From contig QHVI01000058.1 in the NCBI GenBank assembly GCA_003223515.1, positions 1 to 34,399 on the forward strand: DNA of 34,399 nucleotides, given 5' to 3'. A model generated the notes under the pieces. It was not told the origin of the DNA, made no database searches, and saw only the letters and a list, made by a program, of their open reading frames with translations. Below, piece by piece: positions 497 through 7,402 of this stretch (within the stretch, counting starts at the first letter, position 1; each line of letters opens with the position of its first letter). The stretch is from Candidatus Angelobacter sp. Gp1-AA117. Its GTDB lineage: Bacteria > Acidobacteriota > Terriglobia > Terriglobales > Acidobacteriaceae. A program made the translations under genes and the position numbers.

Positions 497-1918
497 TCAA
501 CGGGCGACACTTCCTTTGCGAAGCGTTCTTGGATTCTGAGCGTATGACGCGGGTGTTCTACTTAGCTGAGTTGGTTCACTCGACGCCTGTTCGTGATAAA
601 AGGTTTGCCTCGCGAACTGTACGAGTTTGCTTTTCGTAAGTGTTAGGCGCCCTGAAGGAATACGGTGCACAACGCGGGAGGGCGTGGCGGAGAAACCCAC
701 AACACGCGAGTTCAGATCCGTAAGGTGCCGGACTAGACGAGTCACCACCTGCTGATTACAGTCTTGGCACCCTTGAATCCGATCTACCAGAGAGTCTTGC
801 AACCACGCAAGATGCCGCTGGGCGGCCTCCTCGGGGGTATGATTCCCTTGGACAAATCCGCCAGAAATATAGCTCATATTGTCAGCAGTTTCTTCCAATC
901 TATGGTCCTGCTGGAGGAGATGTGCCGCCAATCCAGGATGGAAACGCTGGATCATCGGAAAGACCTGGAAGAGGAAGGCTTCATTGCGATCAGTAAACGA
1001 GAGTATCTTGCCGCTCGAATCGATTTGAAGCTCCGCATAATAGTCTCCTGGGATATGGATCGGGTCGTTCTTCAGCCGTCGAAAGAATGTTGCCAATGCC
1101 TCAGCAGCAAGCTGTTTGTCAACCCAAGAATCATTCAGCGACTGCAAGAGTCGCAGGAACTCTTCATCCCGATTATAGAAACCCGTTTCGCTTGCATAAA
1201 AGGCTAAGGCATCACGGAGAAGTGCACTTGCCTCCTTCTCTAACGATCTTGGAAGGCTGCGAATGACCTTGGCAATGCCAACGTATGGGTACTGTCCTGT
1301 CTTACCTAAATATCTAGCCTTCGCGGCAATGATCGAGACTTCGAATGGGTTGAGCTTCGCAAAATTGACGAATGTTATTTCTGCTGCGTTGTAACGAGGA
1401 TCTTCATATAGCCATTGGCCCCGCCCGGGTCGCTGGAAGCTTACTTTTGAGAGCAACTCCATGGCTGCCACAGGGTCGACATAGGACAAACACGTCACAG
1501 CATTTTTTTGACCAACAGCACGCAATGCTGGACTCCGTTCGGCTGTCGCAACTCGGAACAGGATTAAAGCCACATCCTTGGCCATCTCTGGGTGATTGGA
1601 AGAAACACTCGCGCGGCACATTTCAACAAGATTGATCAGCTGGTCCTGACTACCCAACGCTTGGCGCAAATGAAAAGTTGTTGGGTCAACAAGCGGATTA
1701 CGAGCCTGGAATGCCATAGTCTCATCTAGCAGCTGAGCGTTCGGGAAAGAATAATTTGCCTCGAGTATCGATTGACCAGCAGAGCATTGGTCACTACTTG
1801 TCGAACTCGCATAGCTGCCGCCGGACAAATCGGTATCACGCTGGAAACCGCACTTTTCTCCGAATGCTACTTGCGACCCGCAAAAAAGCACTATAAAAAT
1901 AATTAATATGTTTTTCAT
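497..1918 (-). pseudogene. Secreted hypothetical protein, second paralogue, 3' end disrupted
   Basis: The product has an N-terminal signal peptide (MKNILIIFIVLFCGSQVAFG) and is an obvious paralogue of the upstream protein at 1915-3513. Shared blocks include QKNAVTCLS, AMELLSK, GQWLYEDPRYNAAE, ARYLGQTGQYPY-like, FYNRDEEFL, GDYYAE and GGFVQG. Similarity stops at VVGFSA, near base 680. It resumes in a different frame for about 30 residues (LPRCAPYSFRAPNTYEKQ against LPALARSNPSEGHSIYEKQ) before a TGA at 576-578. The gene is therefore frameshifted and lacks roughly the last 120 residues of its paralogue. Its ATG overlaps the upstream TGA (ATGA) and follows GGAGAAGG, so translation is coupled. The function is unknown; helical repeats are likely. 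Confidence 0.7.
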
Positions 1919-3513
1919 TGTACCTTCTCCTGGCCTCCAAGGAATCCCTCGACCAATGCCCCTCCGCGATCTCGCGTTCGTTCAGTCGCGTGTGCATCAG
2001 AGCATGACTTAGTCGCCATTGGCAGAGCCCTTAACGTTCCATGACCATCTGCTTCATACAGCCAGAGATAAGCCTTGAGCCAATCATCGGGCAGCTGCTG
2101 CACTTCTTCCAGCAGAAAGTCAGTTCGTTGTGAAGCTGTAAAGGTAATAAGGTCGTGGAGTTCATCGAAACCTTGACGTAGCTGTGCGTGGCTGGCCTTA
2201 ACATCATTACTGAAAAGCCGGAAGCCCATATCAAAAGCCTGCATGCTCAAAAATTTGAACTGTTTAAAATCGCCAAGCTGATAGGCAGCTGACGCTACCG
2301 CAACCGTAGCCCGCAATCTCCCGATGGGATTGCTCAAATTGCCGAGTTCGGAGAGTTGTTTTTCGTAGATGCTGTGCCCTTCGGAGGGATTGCTCCGTGC
2401 AAGGGCTGGAAGGATAGCGGAAAAGCCGACGATGCGCAAACTCGGATCGGTTATTCGGTAGGCAAGCTGGACCACCGATTCTGGATTGCAGCCTTGCTGT
2501 TCCTTGATCCGGGAAACGAGGGACTCTTGCAACCATTGAAAATGCTGCCGGGCTGCCTGCTGTGATGTTGGGCTCCCTTGCACAAAACCTCCGGGTATGT
2601 AATGCATACCATCTGTCGCTTCGTCCAGCTTTGCGTCCCTCTGCCGAAGCTCCATTGCCAGCGTCGGATTGAGTTTCCGAATGGCGGGGAATATCAGAAA
2701 TAGAAAGGCTTCATTGCGATCGGTGAATGGGAAGACCTTGCCGCTTGAATCAACGTGGATCTCAGCATAATAGTCGCCCGGAAAATGGATTGGAGAACTC
2801 GTAAGTCGTTGTGCGAAAACGGTTAATGCCCTTACTATTAAATCTTTGTCAACGGAGGGATTATGTAGTGACCGCAACAGAAACAGAAATTCCTCATCGC
2901 GGTTATAGAAGCCGCTTTCGCTCACATAAAATTGCACAGCGTCATTGAAAAGAGTATTTATTTGGTTCTTGAAGTCTGGTGGAAGGCGATCTATGACCAT
3001 TCCAACTCCAAAGTATGGGTATTGTCCAGTCTGGCCTAGATATCTTGCATTTGCTGTAACGCTGTCAATGGTGTTTTGGGATCTGGACATAGTGATCAAG
3101 TTGACAAAAGCCGTCTCAGCAGCGTTGTAGCGAGGATCTTCATACAGCCATTGTCCGGGTTGCTGTTGGAATCCTATCTTGGAGAGAAGCTCCATAGCTG
3201 TCGTCGGGTCAGCATGAGACAGACAGGTTACGGCATTCTTCTGTCCTATAATGCGTAACTTAGCATCCTGCCCTGTGGAAGCGAGACGGAACAACGCTAA
3301 GGAATACTCCTGTGTTTTTTTCGTGGAAAGGTTGAGGTGGGGGCTCAAATGACACAATTCGATAAGATAAGTTAGCTGCTCGCGACCGCCAAGCATTTGG
3401 CTCAAACGATAACTTTCATCCACCAGTCCATCATCCTTCTCCGTGGGAACGGCTGGAAGACTGATCAAAAACCAGACGGAAACGAGAAGCCGCCATTGCC
3501 GTGCTGTCTTCAT
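1915..3513 (-). CDS. Secreted hypothetical protein, first paralogue (532 aa)
   Basis: The start is an ATG with a purine-rich GGAAAGAG upstream, and residues 1-24 form a signal peptide (MKTARQWRLLVSVWFLISLPAVPT). The rest is mostly helical, with no catalytic motif I recognise. It reads like an alpha-solenoid of TPR or HEAT type, with repeated Ala/Leu helices and conserved patches around GQWLYEDPRYNAAETAFVN and FYNRDEEFLFLLRSL. The last 40 residues are polar and poorly structured. It is the intact member of a tandem pair with 497-1918 and overlaps it by four bases. Both genes lie on the same strand as the TIR and LRR genes, 244 bases downstream of the LRR gene, so they may belong to the same locus. 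The function is unknown. Confidence 0.85.
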   Translation of the reverse strand: MKTARQWRLLVSVWFLISLPAVPTEKDDGLVDESYRLSQMLGGREQLTYLIELCHLSPHLNLSTKKTQEYSLALFRLASTGQDAKLRIIGQKNAVTCLSHADPTTAMELLSKIGFQQQPGQWLYEDPRYNAAETAFVNLITMSRSQNTIDSVTANARYLGQTGQYPYFGVGMVIDRLPPDFKNQINTLFNDAVQFYVSESGFYNRDEEFLFLLRSLHNPSVDKDLIVRALTVFAQRLTSSPIHFPGDYYAEIHVDSSGKVFPFTDRNEAFLFLIFPAIRKLNPTLAMELRQRDAKLDEATDGMHYIPGGFVQGSPTSQQAARQHFQWLQESLVSRIKEQQGCNPESVVQLAYRITDPSLRIVGFSAILPALARSNPSEGHSIYEKQLSELGNLSNPIGRLRATVAVASAAYQLGDFKQFKFLSMQAFDMGFRLFSNDVKASHAQLRQGFDELHDLITFTASQRTDFLLEEVQQLPDDWLKAYLWLYEADGHGTLRALPMATKSCSDAHATERTRDRGGALVEGFLGGQEKVQ

Positions 3514-3757: not shown

Positions 3758-5620
3758 CTAGGGCATGAACGCCAACGCTTTGACCGATCTTGGCAGATTT
3801 TTTAAGGAGGAAAAGCCCCCATCGATGGTCAACTCTTGAAGCTGAGAGAGATTCCCAGTCTGACTAAGCATGAGCCCAGAATGCCTGATATCCATCTCGA
3901 CTCTCCGCAAGCTCTTGAGCGGCTTCAAATTGGGGAGAGTTTGCATATTGGTATGCTTCAGATCCAAGCACAGTTCCTCAAGACTGCTTACCTCCTCCAG
4001 CGACGACAGGTCCTTGATGTCAGAATCCTCCAGAACTAGTGTGACTTTTCTCAAATGAGGCAAGTGAGATAAGTTGGGCAGTTTGGAGATGTGGGAGCCC
4101 TTGAGATCGAGAGTTAACTCTTCCAGCGCCTGCAGATTGCTGATATCAGGTAATTGTTCCGTGCTTGGCAAATCATCCAAGTGGAGTTCAAAAATGCGCA
4201 GTCCCTTTATCAGCCCCAGATCTGGCAAGTCGTGGATCTGAGACCATCTCAAGCGAAGAGCAAGTTTCTCGATGCTCCCGAGTTTAGCAATAAAGCCCAT
4301 GTCTCGAATATTCGCTCCGTCTATATCCAATGAAAGACTCCTTAGTCCCCTGAGGCTTTCAACACTATTCAAGGATGTGATTTTGGAATCTGCTAGCGCC
4401 AAATCTAGGTCATGGAGCTTCGGAAGTTCTGTAAAATCCGGCAATTCCGAGATTACTGTTCCACTTACATGCAATATTAATCTATCGAGATCACGAATTT
4501 TAGAAATATCTGGAAGCTTGTCTACTGCGCTCATGTCCAGATCCAAATCAAGCGTTCTCAAGCCCACGAGATGGCCAATCTCCGGTAGGCGGCGAACTTC
4601 CGAACCGTTGAGGTGTATCGCTAACTGTTGCAATTGCTTAAGGTAGGTCATATCGGGAACTGAAGTCTCATCAGTAAGGTTACTGCCTCTCGTCCCTGGC
4701 ATATAAATGGTTAGATTCACGAGTCCTCGAAGGGCAGTAAGATCGGGCAACTTAATGTTGGGCGGTGATGCGAGCGAAAGCGTCAGAGAACGAAGGCTTT
4801 GACTGTAATTCAAGCCTGATAGCAGATTCAATTGGGTTCCATCCAAACTAAGACTAAGGGCTTCCAGACCCTCGATCTTCGCCAGCGAATCCAGGCTTTG
4901 TACGCGAGAGTAGTCCAGCAAGAGAGTTAGGGAGCGGAGTTGGGTCAGTCCCGATGTATCGGGAAGCTGGGAAACTGTACGGACAGTCCGCAGATCGAGA
5001 TAGAGGTCTCTAAGTTCTGGAAAGATACTAATTTCTGGCATAATCTGTTGTTTCGCCAGGCCAATGTGCCGCAGAGTCAAACTTTGAAGGTGGCGAAGAG
5101 AGGAAATACCGGCGAGGGAGTACAGCGGAAGATCTCTCAAATCTAGATCCAGGGATTGCAGTTGGGGAATGTGAGTAAGGCCATCCAGCGAACTTAAGTT
5201 GCGACTCGCAAGAGTGAAGTGCTTGAGGGTATTTGAATCAAGCCAATCCAAATCACTCAAAGCTACCTGATCAATGTTTAAGGATTCGAATTGGCCTTGA
5301 TAATCACGCAGATCGGAGGGTAAGCCAAAATGCTTCAATTGATTGTGAAAACCATCCTCCAACGATTTCTGATGTCGCCAGAGCCACACACCAGTGCATA
5401 CAATCAAGAGTACAGCTGCGGCGATGAGAAGCCTCAGCCAAGGTGGAAAGTGGCTCAGTACGCTTGAAGCATTTTTTGTTGTACTCGATGCACTATGATC
5501 AGGCTTTTCTGAATTCGAAGAGGAATCGCGAACAGTCGCGACTGCAATCATCTGCGCGTCGTGAATTGAGCCACGTGCTACATCTGCAATATCCCCCTTC
5601 TCCTCTTTGGCCGCACTCAA
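3758..5620 (-). CDS. Membrane-anchored leucine-rich-repeat protein
   Basis: The 620-residue product has a polar N-terminus (about 1-58), one transmembrane helix (about 61-81, LRLLIAAAVLLIVCTGVWLW) and then leucine-rich repeats to the end. The repeats are about 22-24 residues long, with signatures such as LRSLTLLLD, LPDISKI, LDLDLDMSAVDKLPD and LEELTLDLKGSHISKLP. The predicted form is a single-pass receptor or scaffold with a large LRR domain on one side of the membrane; topology cannot be fixed from charge alone (Arg63 before, Arg82/His83 after). The start is probably TTG at 5620: no ATG or GTG exists upstream in frame, and the first internal ATG is Met24. It lies 44 bases behind the TIR gene on the same strand. 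LRR domains bind proteins or ligands; partner unknown. Confidence 0.88.
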   Translation of the reverse strand: MSAAKEEKGDIADVARGSIHDAQMIAVATVRDSSSNSEKPDHSASSTTKNASSVLSHFPPWLRLLIAAAVLLIVCTGVWLWRHQKSLEDGFHNQLKHFGLPSDLRDYQGQFESLNIDQVALSDLDWLDSNTLKHFTLASRNLSSLDGLTHIPQLQSLDLDLRDLPLYSLAGISSLRHLQSLTLRHIGLAKQQIMPEISIFPELRDLYLDLRTVRTVSQLPDTSGLTQLRSLTLLLDYSRVQSLDSLAKIEGLEALSLSLDGTQLNLLSGLNYSQSLRSLTLSLASPPNIKLPDLTALRGLVNLTIYMPGTRGSNLTDETSVPDMTYLKQLQQLAIHLNGSEVRRLPEIGHLVGLRTLDLDLDMSAVDKLPDISKIRDLDRLILHVSGTVISELPDFTELPKLHDLDLALADSKITSLNSVESLRGLRSLSLDIDGANIRDMGFIAKLGSIEKLALRLRWSQIHDLPDLGLIKGLRIFELHLDDLPSTEQLPDISNLQALEELTLDLKGSHISKLPNLSHLPHLRKVTLVLEDSDIKDLSSLEEVSSLEELCLDLKHTNMQTLPNLKPLKSLRRVEMDIRHSGLMLSQTGNLSQLQELTIDGGFSSLKNLPRSVKALAFMP

Positions 5621-5664
5621 TTGCTGGCTCGCCGGCGCGGTGCGACTTATTTCCGGCGAGCCTG

Positions 5665-6180
5665 CTAAGGGTGGTGAGGTGTTGCCTTGATCGCTTGCAG
5701 CAACTTCGCGATTCCTTCAGTGCGCTCTGCCTTTGGGAATAGCTTCACATAATGGAGATCCTTTATTTTTCGGGTACTGTCGATTTTAATCGAAGGAACT
5801 GCACAATCCGACAGAAGTACCGGAATTAGAAAAATCCTATCAGGCGGATATTGTCGATAAGCGGAAATTGCATCGCTTGCCTCCGGATAAATTCCAGAAG
5901 TGACCCGTGCCTCCGATTCTTTCGACAAGCAAAGAATGACTGCGTAGGCATTTTCCATGGCCTTCTCAATTGCAAGCGCCCAATTCTGTCCAGGAAGAAG
6001 GTCTTGGTCCCACCAAATATTTTCACCGGCAGCAATCAGATCATCTCGCAACAGCTTGACCTCTGCTTGATTTTCGCGACAATATGATAAAAATACATGC
6101 TTCTTAGGCATTGCTCGCTCCGTTCCACCCTTGGCAATTCCTTCGGCTGATCCTTTTGTCACGTAATCCAGAGACAACAT
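5665..6180 (-). CDS. TIR-domain protein
   Basis: The 171-residue product is essentially one TIR domain. Box 1 is HVFLSYCREN (about 28-37), the BB-loop region is ENIWWDQDLLPGQNW (about 53-67), and the helix holding the usual catalytic glutamate reads SGIYPEASDAI, making Glu100 the candidate. Many bacterial TIR domains cleave NAD+ or make cyclic ADP-ribose signals; whether this one does is inference. There is no transmembrane segment if translation starts at the chosen ATG. That ATG was preferred because AGGAG lies eight bases upstream; Met24 at 6111 (GGAG six bases upstream) is an alternative. The gene is followed after 44 bases by a membrane LRR protein, suggesting a signalling pair in one operon. 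Confidence 0.88.
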   Translation of the reverse strand: MLSLDYVTKGSAEGIAKGGTERAMPKKHVFLSYCRENQAEVKLLRDDLIAAGENIWWDQDLLPGQNWALAIEKAMENAYAVILCLSKESEARVTSGIYPEASDAISAYRQYPPDRIFLIPVLLSDCAVPSIKIDSTRKIKDLHYVKLFPKAERTEGIAKLLQAIKATPHHP

Positions 6181-6188
6181 ATCAAAAA

Positions 6189-6193
6189 CTCCT
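6189..6193 (-). promoter_or_regulatory. Ribosome binding site of the TIR gene
   Basis: AGGAG on the minus strand, eight bases before the ATG at 6180. It decides the start: the reading frame is open further upstream, but that extension has no comparable site. Confidence 0.7.
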
Positions 6194-6274
6194 GAGGGGG
6201 AGCAAAATGGAATGCCTGATGTTAAGAAAGAAGAACTGAAAAGGAGCCACTGAAGGCTCACATCTACGTATCGC

Positions 6275-6301
6275 AGCCTCCTGATGCAACATCAGGAGGT
6301 T
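6275..6301. repeat. Strong hairpin upstream of the TIR gene
   Basis: CCTCCTGATG at 6277-6286 pairs perfectly with CATCAGGAGG at 6290-6299 around the loop CAA. One wobble and one A-T pair extend the stem. It lies about 95 bases upstream of the TIR start. There is no T-run on either side, so it is not a standard terminator; it could be an operator, a leader structure or the end of a lost element. Confidence 0.6.
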
Positions 6302-6981
6302 AATAGAACAGCAATTCGGGCGTTGCGCGCGTTGAAGTAGTCGTAGCCCAAATGGGCAACTATTCCCTCCCATGTCGGGTAAATCTGGTTGCTTTTCTAT
6401 AAAGCACCTACTATAGTATCTATGCTCCGCTCAGGCGGAAGCGCAGGTTTTGTTCTTTGAAAACTGAATATACATTGACGCTTACAGCACACCTCTATCT
6501 TGAGGGGCGCACTGGAAAGGCGAACTGCCGTAACAACGTAACCTGTCGTAACCCAGTCTAATACCCTTGGGATTAATAAGGATTGTGACGGCGTTACGCC
6601 TGTTACGCCAATTTTTTGTTCTCCCGCAAAGTCTCCGCGCCTCCGTGTCTCGGTGTCTCCGTGGTGCGCCTTTTGATCTTGTTCCTCTGCGTCCTTTGCG
6701 TCCTCTGCGGTTAAAGGTTTTGGTTGTGGCTCGCCACGCTGTGGTAAAAGCCTTCTGTTCCGCTTCTGAACCGGAACACGGAACGTCAACCGGAACAGCA
6801 GATGTGAAGCAGTGAAAGGACTTCTCCATTTGTTCCGTGTTCCGGTTCATCTCAGCCAATTGCCAAAACGCTCTGGCCTGCGCTGCAGATATATCGGTCA
6901 AAGAAGCGGCAACGTTGTAGCCCGCTGATACAGCAAAACCACTGAGAAATTGGCCGAAAATACCTCGTTTGGCGATATTCC
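6302..6981. other. Long spacer with repeats, no gene recognised
   Basis: No convincing coding frame was found on either strand. The stretch holds mosaic repeat text (GCGCCTCCGTGTC, GTCTCCGTGGTG, GCGTCCTTTGCGTCCTCTGCGG, about 6635-6715). It also holds a perfect 18-bp inverted repeat with arms at 6767-6784 and 6832-6849, containing CCGGAACACGGAAC and its complement, separated by 47 bases. Open frames over this part are low-complexity readings of the repeats. Confidence 0.6.
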
Positions 6982-7017
6982 TTGACCATCCGGCAACTCT
7001 GGATCATACTTTTTCCC

Positions 7018-7314
7018 ATGTTCACGTCGCTGTTTGGACGGTGCATCGGCATCTTTTCAGCCGTCGCTGTACTGCTTCTATTTTTCTTTCCGCTGGTTAC
7101 TGGCCCGTTTCCTGCCACTCACGGTCCGGCTACCATCTTTCGTCTCAAATGGGCCGTCCTCATGCTGCTTCTCAGCATGGTTATCGCGGCATTCCGTATT
7201 GCTTCTATGCGGTTGGTCAAAGCGCGGCTGGCTTGTGCGCGGCTTGCAGAGGCGCGAGAGCACATTAGGCGCGACGTGACTCCGGCCGCTCTCATGCGCG
7301 TCCTGCGCTGCTGA
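7018..7314 (+). CDS. Small membrane protein (98 aa)
   Basis: From ATG 7018 the product has two strongly hydrophobic segments (about 9-26, CIGIFSAVAVLLLFFFPL, and about 46-60, WAVLMLLLSMVIAAF). The loop between them reads TGPFPATHGPATIFR, and the tail is basic and Ala/Arg-rich. The hydrophobic pattern and the Gly/Pro loop look like a real inner-membrane protein rather than a chance frame. No good Shine-Dalgarno precedes this ATG; a TTG at 6982 would add 12 residues. It lies upstream of the Pal gene on the same strand, 88 bases away. Function unknown. Confidence 0.55.
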   Translation: MFTSLFGRCIGIFSAVAVLLLFFFPLVTGPFPATHGPATIFRLKWAVLMLLLSMVIAAFRIASMRLVKARLACARLAEAREHIRRDVTPAALMRVLRC

Positions 7315-7402
7315 TCCCCGCGTTCAAACACCTTTCCTGAATCAACGAAACCCGCAGCTCACATTGAGCTTTTTTGTGTATTTGGATTTGAGGAGAATTC
7401 CG

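What the first reader, a model, noticed from the sequence alone, without database searches (positions are those of the whole stretch)
3758..6180. TIR protein plus membrane LRR protein: a split, reversed Toll-like receptor
Seen: a TIR domain gene (5665-6180) followed after 44 bases by a single-pass membrane protein with LRRs after its helix. Known: animal Toll-like receptors are LRR-membrane-TIR in one chain; bacterial TIR proteins often make NAD-derived signals in defence. Inference: here the same parts occur as TIR, then membrane helix, then LRR, on two genes. If the LRR faces outside and the TIR binds the N-terminal tail, it would be a bacterial sensor with receptor logic.
Basis: partly seen in the sequence, partly recalled or inferred. 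Interest (0 to 1): 0.85.

Follow-up and report, generated by a model that had tools for sequence, protein, structure and literature searches.

The report
Bacterial TIR gene with membrane LRR
A bacterium of the phylum Acidobacteriota carries a gene for a TIR protein, probably a signalling enzyme, right next to a gene for a membrane-anchored leucine-rich-repeat protein; the two may form an immune-like sensor and effector that resembles animal Toll-like receptors in logic but does not descend from them as a unit.

Summary
In detail: a 171-aa TIR_2 protein (5665-6180, minus) and, 44 nt on, a 620-aa protein with one membrane helix and about twenty LRRs. The TIR keeps the catalytic-column glutamate. 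The LRR chain is a defined module, matched from helix to C-terminal cap in four other Acidobacteriota proteins: three are nSTAND1-TM-LRR; one is KGGVGR ATPase-TM-LRR with a TIR-like gene 3 nt upstream. Charges in those four put the LRR outside; the window protein's own charges are undecided. So the neighbourhood recurs in 1 of 4 relatives, with a divergent TIR. The window's TIR is closest (56%) to the C-terminal TIR of an NB-ARC-WD40-TIR protein in its genus. No single-chain TIR-TM-LRR turned up, and the closest sequences are bacterial STAND-type parts, not TLRs. Best reading (0.45): an NTPase-less, two-gene membrane relative of bacterial STAND/TIR conflict receptors, TLR-like by convergence. 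Open rivals: loose neighbours, a frameshifted or broken fusion (the LRR gene starts at a TTG without clear Shine-Dalgarno, behind a hairpin), or a cytoplasmic LRR. The LRR gene was not found in the 8 other genus genomes searched.

The parts
5665..6180 (-). TIR_2 protein, 171 aa, ATG start with Shine-Dalgarno-like CAGGAG; putative NAD-processing effector
   Evidence: Pfam TIR_2 72.6 bits; fold matches TLR10/PdTIR TIR domains; Glu of the YPE motif aligned with Glu in 24 of 25 other TIRs
5626..5663 (-). 38-nt hairpin filling most of the gap between the two genes; perfect 10-bp GGCTCGCCGG/CCGGCGAGCC arms, just after the TIR stop
   Evidence: fold (z-score only -1.55, 15 of 200 shuffles fold as well); pattern made from the window and G003 occurs once in each of these two and in none of the other 7 genus genomes
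3758..5620 (-). Membrane LRR protein, 620 aa, TTG start: tail 1-55, membrane helix about 62-82, N-cap (PSDLRDYQGQ), about twenty LRRs of about 24 residues, C-cap (SLKNLPRSVKALAF)
   Evidence: Pfam LRR families, hydropathy, model with 22 strands, homology from helix to C-cap with four other proteins
5375..5437 (-). Membrane helix of the LRR protein (residues about 62-82)
   Evidence: hydropathy peak at residues 62-80; helix 60-96 in the model; aligned with the helix of four relatives

Best explanation
A two-gene conflict (immune-like) receptor. The LRR protein sits in the inner membrane with its short N-terminal tail in the cytoplasm and its LRR solenoid in the periplasm, where it senses a surface or cell-envelope ligand (phage, rival or damage). 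Ligand-driven clustering is passed through the helix to the tail, which gathers or releases the soluble TIR; the clustered TIR then cleaves or converts NAD, giving growth arrest or a nucleotide signal. It is an NTPase-less counterpart of the nSTAND1-TM-LRR and KGGVGR-TM-LRR-plus-TIR proteins of other Acidobacteriota. Shown: both genes, TIR family, catalytic-column Glu, membrane helix, LRR fold, homology of the whole TM-LRR module to NTPase-coupled proteins, one further TIR-like neighbour. Inferred: sidedness, physical contact, ligand, NAD chemistry, defence role.
For: The TM-LRR module aligns with G342 over 501 aa (28%, E 1e-39 for the single comparison); the N-cap alignment, helix left out, beats 2000 of 2000 residue shuffles. 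Helix, N-cap and C-cap recur in five proteins. Relatives carry the module behind nSTAND1 or a KGGVGR ATPase (NF047398, 110.5 bits, cut-off 90); the latter has a TIR-like gene 3 nt upstream: FxsC_Nterm E 2.2e-9, and second best of 472 ORFs, after the G003 TIR, with a TIR profile built without it (19.0 bits, E 2.3e-5). K/R before and after the helix, 20-residue flanks: 6/2, 8/4, 6/4, 6/3 in the four relatives. Catalytic-column Glu. TIR proteins with one membrane helix in the same chain exist in the phylum: L025 (TIR, helix 185-210, CarboxypepD_reg) and L029 (TIR, helix 303-325). Same strand, 44-nt gap.
Against: Only 1 of 4 TM-LRR relatives has a TIR in the fetched flanks of about 2-6 kb, and that TIR is divergent: TIR_2 24.7 bits, below the cut-off 28, FxsC_Nterm 37.5, cut-off 130. 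All four relatives carry an NTPase, the window pair none. The closest TIR relative serves in a protein without a hydrophobic segment. The window protein's own flanking charges do not decide: 2 K/R before and 2 after (20 residues), 2 and 3 (15 residues). The LRR start is a TTG without a clear Shine-Dalgarno. PADLOC: partial TIR matches only, none for the LRR protein. The LRR gene has no match in 8 other genus genomes.
Confidence: 0.45

Rival explanations
1. Chance or loose neighbours: the TIR is a cassette related to that of the NB-ARC-WD40-TIR gene of G003, and the TM-LRR gene is a receptor tail that lost its NTPase; the two do not work together.
For: DNA similarity to G003 begins at the TIR and ends about where the LRR gene starts, which looks like a recombination boundary; an NTPase precedes the helix in all four relatives; weak start of the LRR gene; no LRR match in 8 other genus genomes; G881 holds only a C-terminal piece of the module with a stop inside.
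Against: Same strand, 44-nt gap; the 620-aa frame is intact and coding-like at its start; a TIR-like neighbour also in G887.
Confidence: 0.27
2. One broken or frameshift-expressed gene: a TIR-linker-TM-LRR single chain read through a -1 frame change near the TIR stop.
For: The LRR frame is open upstream of the TTG back to a TGA inside the TIR gene; no clear start signal; a hairpin just after the stop; TIR-plus-helix chains exist in the phylum.
Against: The G003 TIR ends at the same codon (HP, stop) with the same hairpin and no LRR gene behind it, so the stop looks native; no classical slippery heptamer (by eye); the codon score of the 14 codons before the TTG is uninformative.
Confidence: 0.15
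3. The LRR faces the cytoplasm (N-out) and the pair is an intracellular membrane-tethered sensor, closer to NLR than to TLR logic.
For: Flanking charges of the window protein are undecided, 2/2 or 2/3; many known bacterial repeat-STAND sensors are cytosolic (recalled).
Against: All four relatives have more K/R on the N side of the helix, next to an NTPase expected in the cytosol.
Confidence: 0.13

Closest known systems
nSTAND1 proteins (Pfam PF20703; nSTAND1 as a name seen in passages of PMC8195603): nSTAND1-TM-LRR of Pyrinomonadaceae MAG contig JAJQRF010000012 (G342) and of G885 and G883
   Same: same TM, N-cap, LRR and C-cap module, homologous from the helix to the end
   Different: the window protein has no NTPase; a separate TIR gene lies next to it
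KGGVGR ATPase (NF047398) - TM-LRR protein with an upstream TIR-like (FxsC-type) gene, G887 (L085)
   Same: TIR-like gene directly upstream of a TM-LRR gene on the same strand
   Different: divergent TIR, and an ATPase in front of the helix
NB-ARC-WD40-TIR protein of the same genus, G003 (L040)
   Same: closest TIR found, 56% identical over 149 columns, same C-terminal end, same hairpin after the stop
   Different: one chain, NB-ARC (98 bits) and WD40, no hydrophobic segment, TIR last
Animal Toll-like receptors
   Same: LRR, one membrane helix and TIR in one presumed signalling path; both models match TLR structures among many others
   Different: two genes, helix before LRR, TIR first; closest sequences are bacterial STAND-type parts

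Membership tests
Toll-like receptor | LRR, helix and TIR in one chain in the order LRR-TM-TIR (order recalled) | tested here: not met
   two ORFs in different frames, TIR first
Toll-like receptor | closest relatives are TLRs | tested here: not met
   closest relatives found are NB-ARC-WD40-TIR and nSTAND1-TM-LRR of Acidobacteriota; no eukaryote sequence collection was searched; the LRR model's nearest folds are internalin A, CtRoco and SHOC2, with TLRs lower; the weak TIR model's top fold match is human TLR10, then PdTIR
TIR_2 (PF13676) | score over curated cut-off | tested here: met
   72.6 bits, cut-off 28
NAD-cleaving TIR enzymes | catalytic glutamate | tested here: met
   Glu in 25 of 26 TIRs aligned, window included; that this column equals SARM1 E642 is recalled, not tested
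NAD-cleaving TIR enzymes | measured NADase activity | not testable with these tools
   needs an assay
TM-LRR module of Acidobacteriota STAND-type proteins (defined here) | helix, DYQxQ-type N-cap, LRRs, SLKxLPxSV-type C-cap | tested here: met
STAND conflict receptors | STAND or other NTPase in the same chain | tested here: not met
   no NTPase family in the TIR or the LRR protein
Anti-phage systems in PADLOC | full-length match to system components | tested here: not met
   partial TIR matches only, best E 1.1e-8; LRR protein none

The most novel reading that the evidence does not exclude
Acidobacteriota have a small family of surface LRR receptors built on one exchangeable outside module (helix plus capped LRR) whose inside partner is swapped between nSTAND1, KGGVGR ATPase plus TIR, and TIR alone; the window is the pared-down TIR-only form, a bacterial receptor that reached TLR-like logic by independent assembly, with a TIR-plus-hairpin cassette as the unit moved between sensors.
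Probability: 0.3. Interest if true: 0.72.

Novelty: new variant of a known kind. Interest (0 to 1): 0.5.

Why it matters
Bacterial TIR and STAND defences are mostly thought of as sensing inside the cell (recalled). A conserved membrane helix plus outward LRR attached to nSTAND1, KGGVGR or TIR partners would be a surface-sensing branch with TLR-like logic, testable in laboratory bacteria, and would show that LRR, membrane and TIR were put together more than once.

Tried and rejected
Rejected or not supported: (1) descent from TLRs as a unit. (2) The hairpin as a dispersed repeat: one exact-pattern copy in each of 2 of 9 genus genomes. (3) The hairpin as a known RNA: the only Rfam match in 5500-7400 at E up to 1 is mir-1010 at 6766-6855, 32.5 bits against a gathering score of 70, taken as chance. 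(4) A conserved coding frame behind the G003 stop: ungapped identity is about 72% for 60 nt, then about 25%.

Led nowhere: genome-contig scan with the TIR alone, 44 stretches, none confirmed; with the LRR alignment only the Pyrinomonadaceae contig already seen as G342. LRR profile searches bring many LRR proteins whose match leaves out the helix. TIR profile at order level: 3 of 172 genomes at E 1e-12 or better, no new close TIR. TIR in plasmids: 9 of 72,556 records, all under 60% identity; their neighbourhoods were not read. Helix-plus-N-cap in plasmids: no match; viral contigs: 127 pattern stretches, none confirmed. These are limited searches, not proof of absence. No search of metagenomes was open to me.

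Papers: searches gave listings, none (one search was useless: 'tir' matched tire and tirzepatide). Of PMC8195603, PMC7159879 and PMC10907252 I saw only found passages. In what I saw, none described a TIR plus membrane-LRR pair.

Faults of mine: the out-of-frame quantiles, the first extension and the repeat listing were wrong; one search replaces the codon scores and the model the repeat count. The TIR profile contained the G887 and G003 TIRs, so their scores there were circular; one search repeats the scan without these two. The 26 TIRs are a choice: left out were the other own-genome matches L002, L003, L004, L006, L007, the loci L028 and L030 (match not in the frame that I read), and L112, fetched later.

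Full report
What is in the window. The minus strand carries a 171-aa TIR protein (5665-6180) and, 44 nt further on, a 620-aa LRR protein (3758-5620). TIR_2 scores 72.6 bits (cut-off 28); LRR_14, LRR_EndoS and LRR_4 score above their cut-offs in the second protein. The second protein has one hydrophobic segment, residues 54-83, and models as a helix at 60-96 and an LRR solenoid of 22 strands (mean pLDDT 73.5, two-row alignment). Its nearest solved folds are internalin A, the Chlorobium Roco LRR and SHOC2, with TLRs lower in the list. The TIR model is weak (58.2, single sequence), yet its best matches are TIR domains, human TLR10 first and PdTIR next.

Gene starts. The TIR ATG has CAGGAG upstream; the LRR TTG has no clear Shine-Dalgarno. 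The first 24 codons behind the TTG are coding-like: 1 of 3407 open out-of-frame windows scores as high (the reference set is nine long ORFs of this window). The 14 codons before the TTG in that frame are undecided: 600 of 5500 out-of-frame windows score as high, and 583 of 5145 coding windows score lower. The LRR frame is open back to a TGA inside the TIR gene.

The TIR and its relatives. Of the 41 genomes, 7 have a match at E 0.001 or better, this genome included; the only close one is G003 of the same genus, 56% identical. There the TIR is the C-terminus of a 1219-aa protein with NB-ARC (98 bits) and WD40 repeats and no hydrophobic segment. Both TIRs end at the same codon. Behind both stops lies the same 38-nt hairpin; the pattern, made from these two, has one copy in each and none in the seven other genus genomes. 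The hairpin is not more stable than composition predicts: z-scores -1.55 and -0.29 for 101-nt stretches, with 15 and 77 of 200 shuffles folding as well. Ungapped DNA identity over the 60 nt from just before the stop is about 72%, then about 25%, the change lying where the LRR gene starts. Upstream, similarity starts at the TIR itself. So TIR plus hairpin looks like a unit that lies in two settings. Among 26 TIRs that I chose to align, the Glu of the window's YPE motif is Glu in 25; the exception is L017, Ala. That this is the SARM1 catalytic position is recalled.

The membrane LRR module. BLASTP aligns it with G342 over 501 residues (28%, E 1e-39); without the helix, the N-cap alignment beats 2000 of 2000 shuffles. 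The G342 protein is nSTAND1-TM-LRR, with a further N-terminal hydrophobic segment at 59-89. Profile A1 found the helix region in 4 of 162 genomes of that class (G342, G885, G883, G887) and, in 399 genomes of the window's class, in the window alone. The five-row A3 found it in the window and G342 only among 396 genomes of the phylum. In some searches often only 3 candidate stretches per genome were scored, so misses are possible. G881 has only a C-terminal piece with a stop inside. G885 and G883 are nSTAND1-TM-LRR too; an N-terminal hydrophobic segment passes the threshold in G883, not in G885. G887 has a KGGVGR ATPase (110.5 bits, cut-off 90) and a C-terminal part of nSTAND1 (68.1 bits) before the helix.

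The TIR beside G887. Three nt upstream of the KGGVGR gene, same strand, is a 213-aa gene. It scores below the curated cut-offs (TIR_2 24.7 of 28; FxsC_Nterm 37.5 of 130, E 2.2e-9). With a TIR profile built without it, it is second of 472 ORFs (19.0 bits, E 2.3e-5), and the only other hit is the G003 TIR. I take it as a divergent TIR. The same scan found none near G342, G885 or G883 (fetched flanks about 2-6 kb). So a TIR neighbour is seen in 1 of 4 relatives.

Topology. In all four relatives K/R before the helix exceed those after it (6/2, 8/4, 6/4, 6/3), with the NTPase on the N side. In the window it is 2/2 over 20 residues, with 0 against 3 acidic residues, and 2/3 over 15 residues, which does not decide. 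By homology I place the LRR outside, with moderate confidence.

Surroundings. The LRR protein has no match in the 8 other genus genomes (completeness 81-100%). The next two genes (1915-3513 and 497-1918) are paralogues, 52% identical over the matched part, with a third copy (26%) elsewhere in this genome and no match in the other eight. Seven TIR_2 matches lie in this genome.

Judgement. The best reading is a pared-down, two-gene membrane form of STAND/TIR conflict receptors. The pairing rests on adjacency plus one recurrence with a divergent TIR, so I give it 0.45. Loose neighbours, a frameshifted fusion and a cytoplasmic LRR remain open. Passages of three papers describe nSTAND1 and TIR conflict systems, some with TM segments or sensors predicted in the periplasm. 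In my listings (empty) and passages I saw no description of this pair, which is not proof that none exists.

Noticed in passing
L010:1-1932 (minus), genome G008: A TIR_2 domain (95.6 bits) in one open frame with a 2Fe-2S thioredoxin domain, the Nuo51 FMN-binding domain and SLBB: a TIR joined to NADH-dehydrogenase-like parts. Unexpected for a possible NAD-consuming domain.
   Followed up: partly
L040:1315-4974: NB-ARC, WD40, C-terminal TIR protein (apoptosome-like order with the TIR last) in the same genus.
   Followed up: yes
L085:3263-6247 (minus): Divergent TIR gene followed by a KGGVGR ATPase-TM-LRR gene.
   Followed up: yes
L017:463-3201: KGGTGR motif (by eye; CbiA/ParA families below cut-off), TIR and TPR in one chain in the window's genus; its TIR has Ala in the catalytic column of my alignment.
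   Followed up: partly
window 497-3513: Two overlapping paralogous genes (52% identical over the matched part) without a Pfam match, and without a match in 8 other genus genomes.
   Followed up: partly
L021 and L022: TIR proteins with an N-terminal stretch that looks like an HU-type DNA-binding segment, by eye only.
   Followed up: no
L086:863-4039 and L087:368-3751: Large LRR proteins that look like Roco type (LRR then GTPase), in the same genome as the G342 nSTAND1-TM-LRR protein; by eye only.
   Followed up: no
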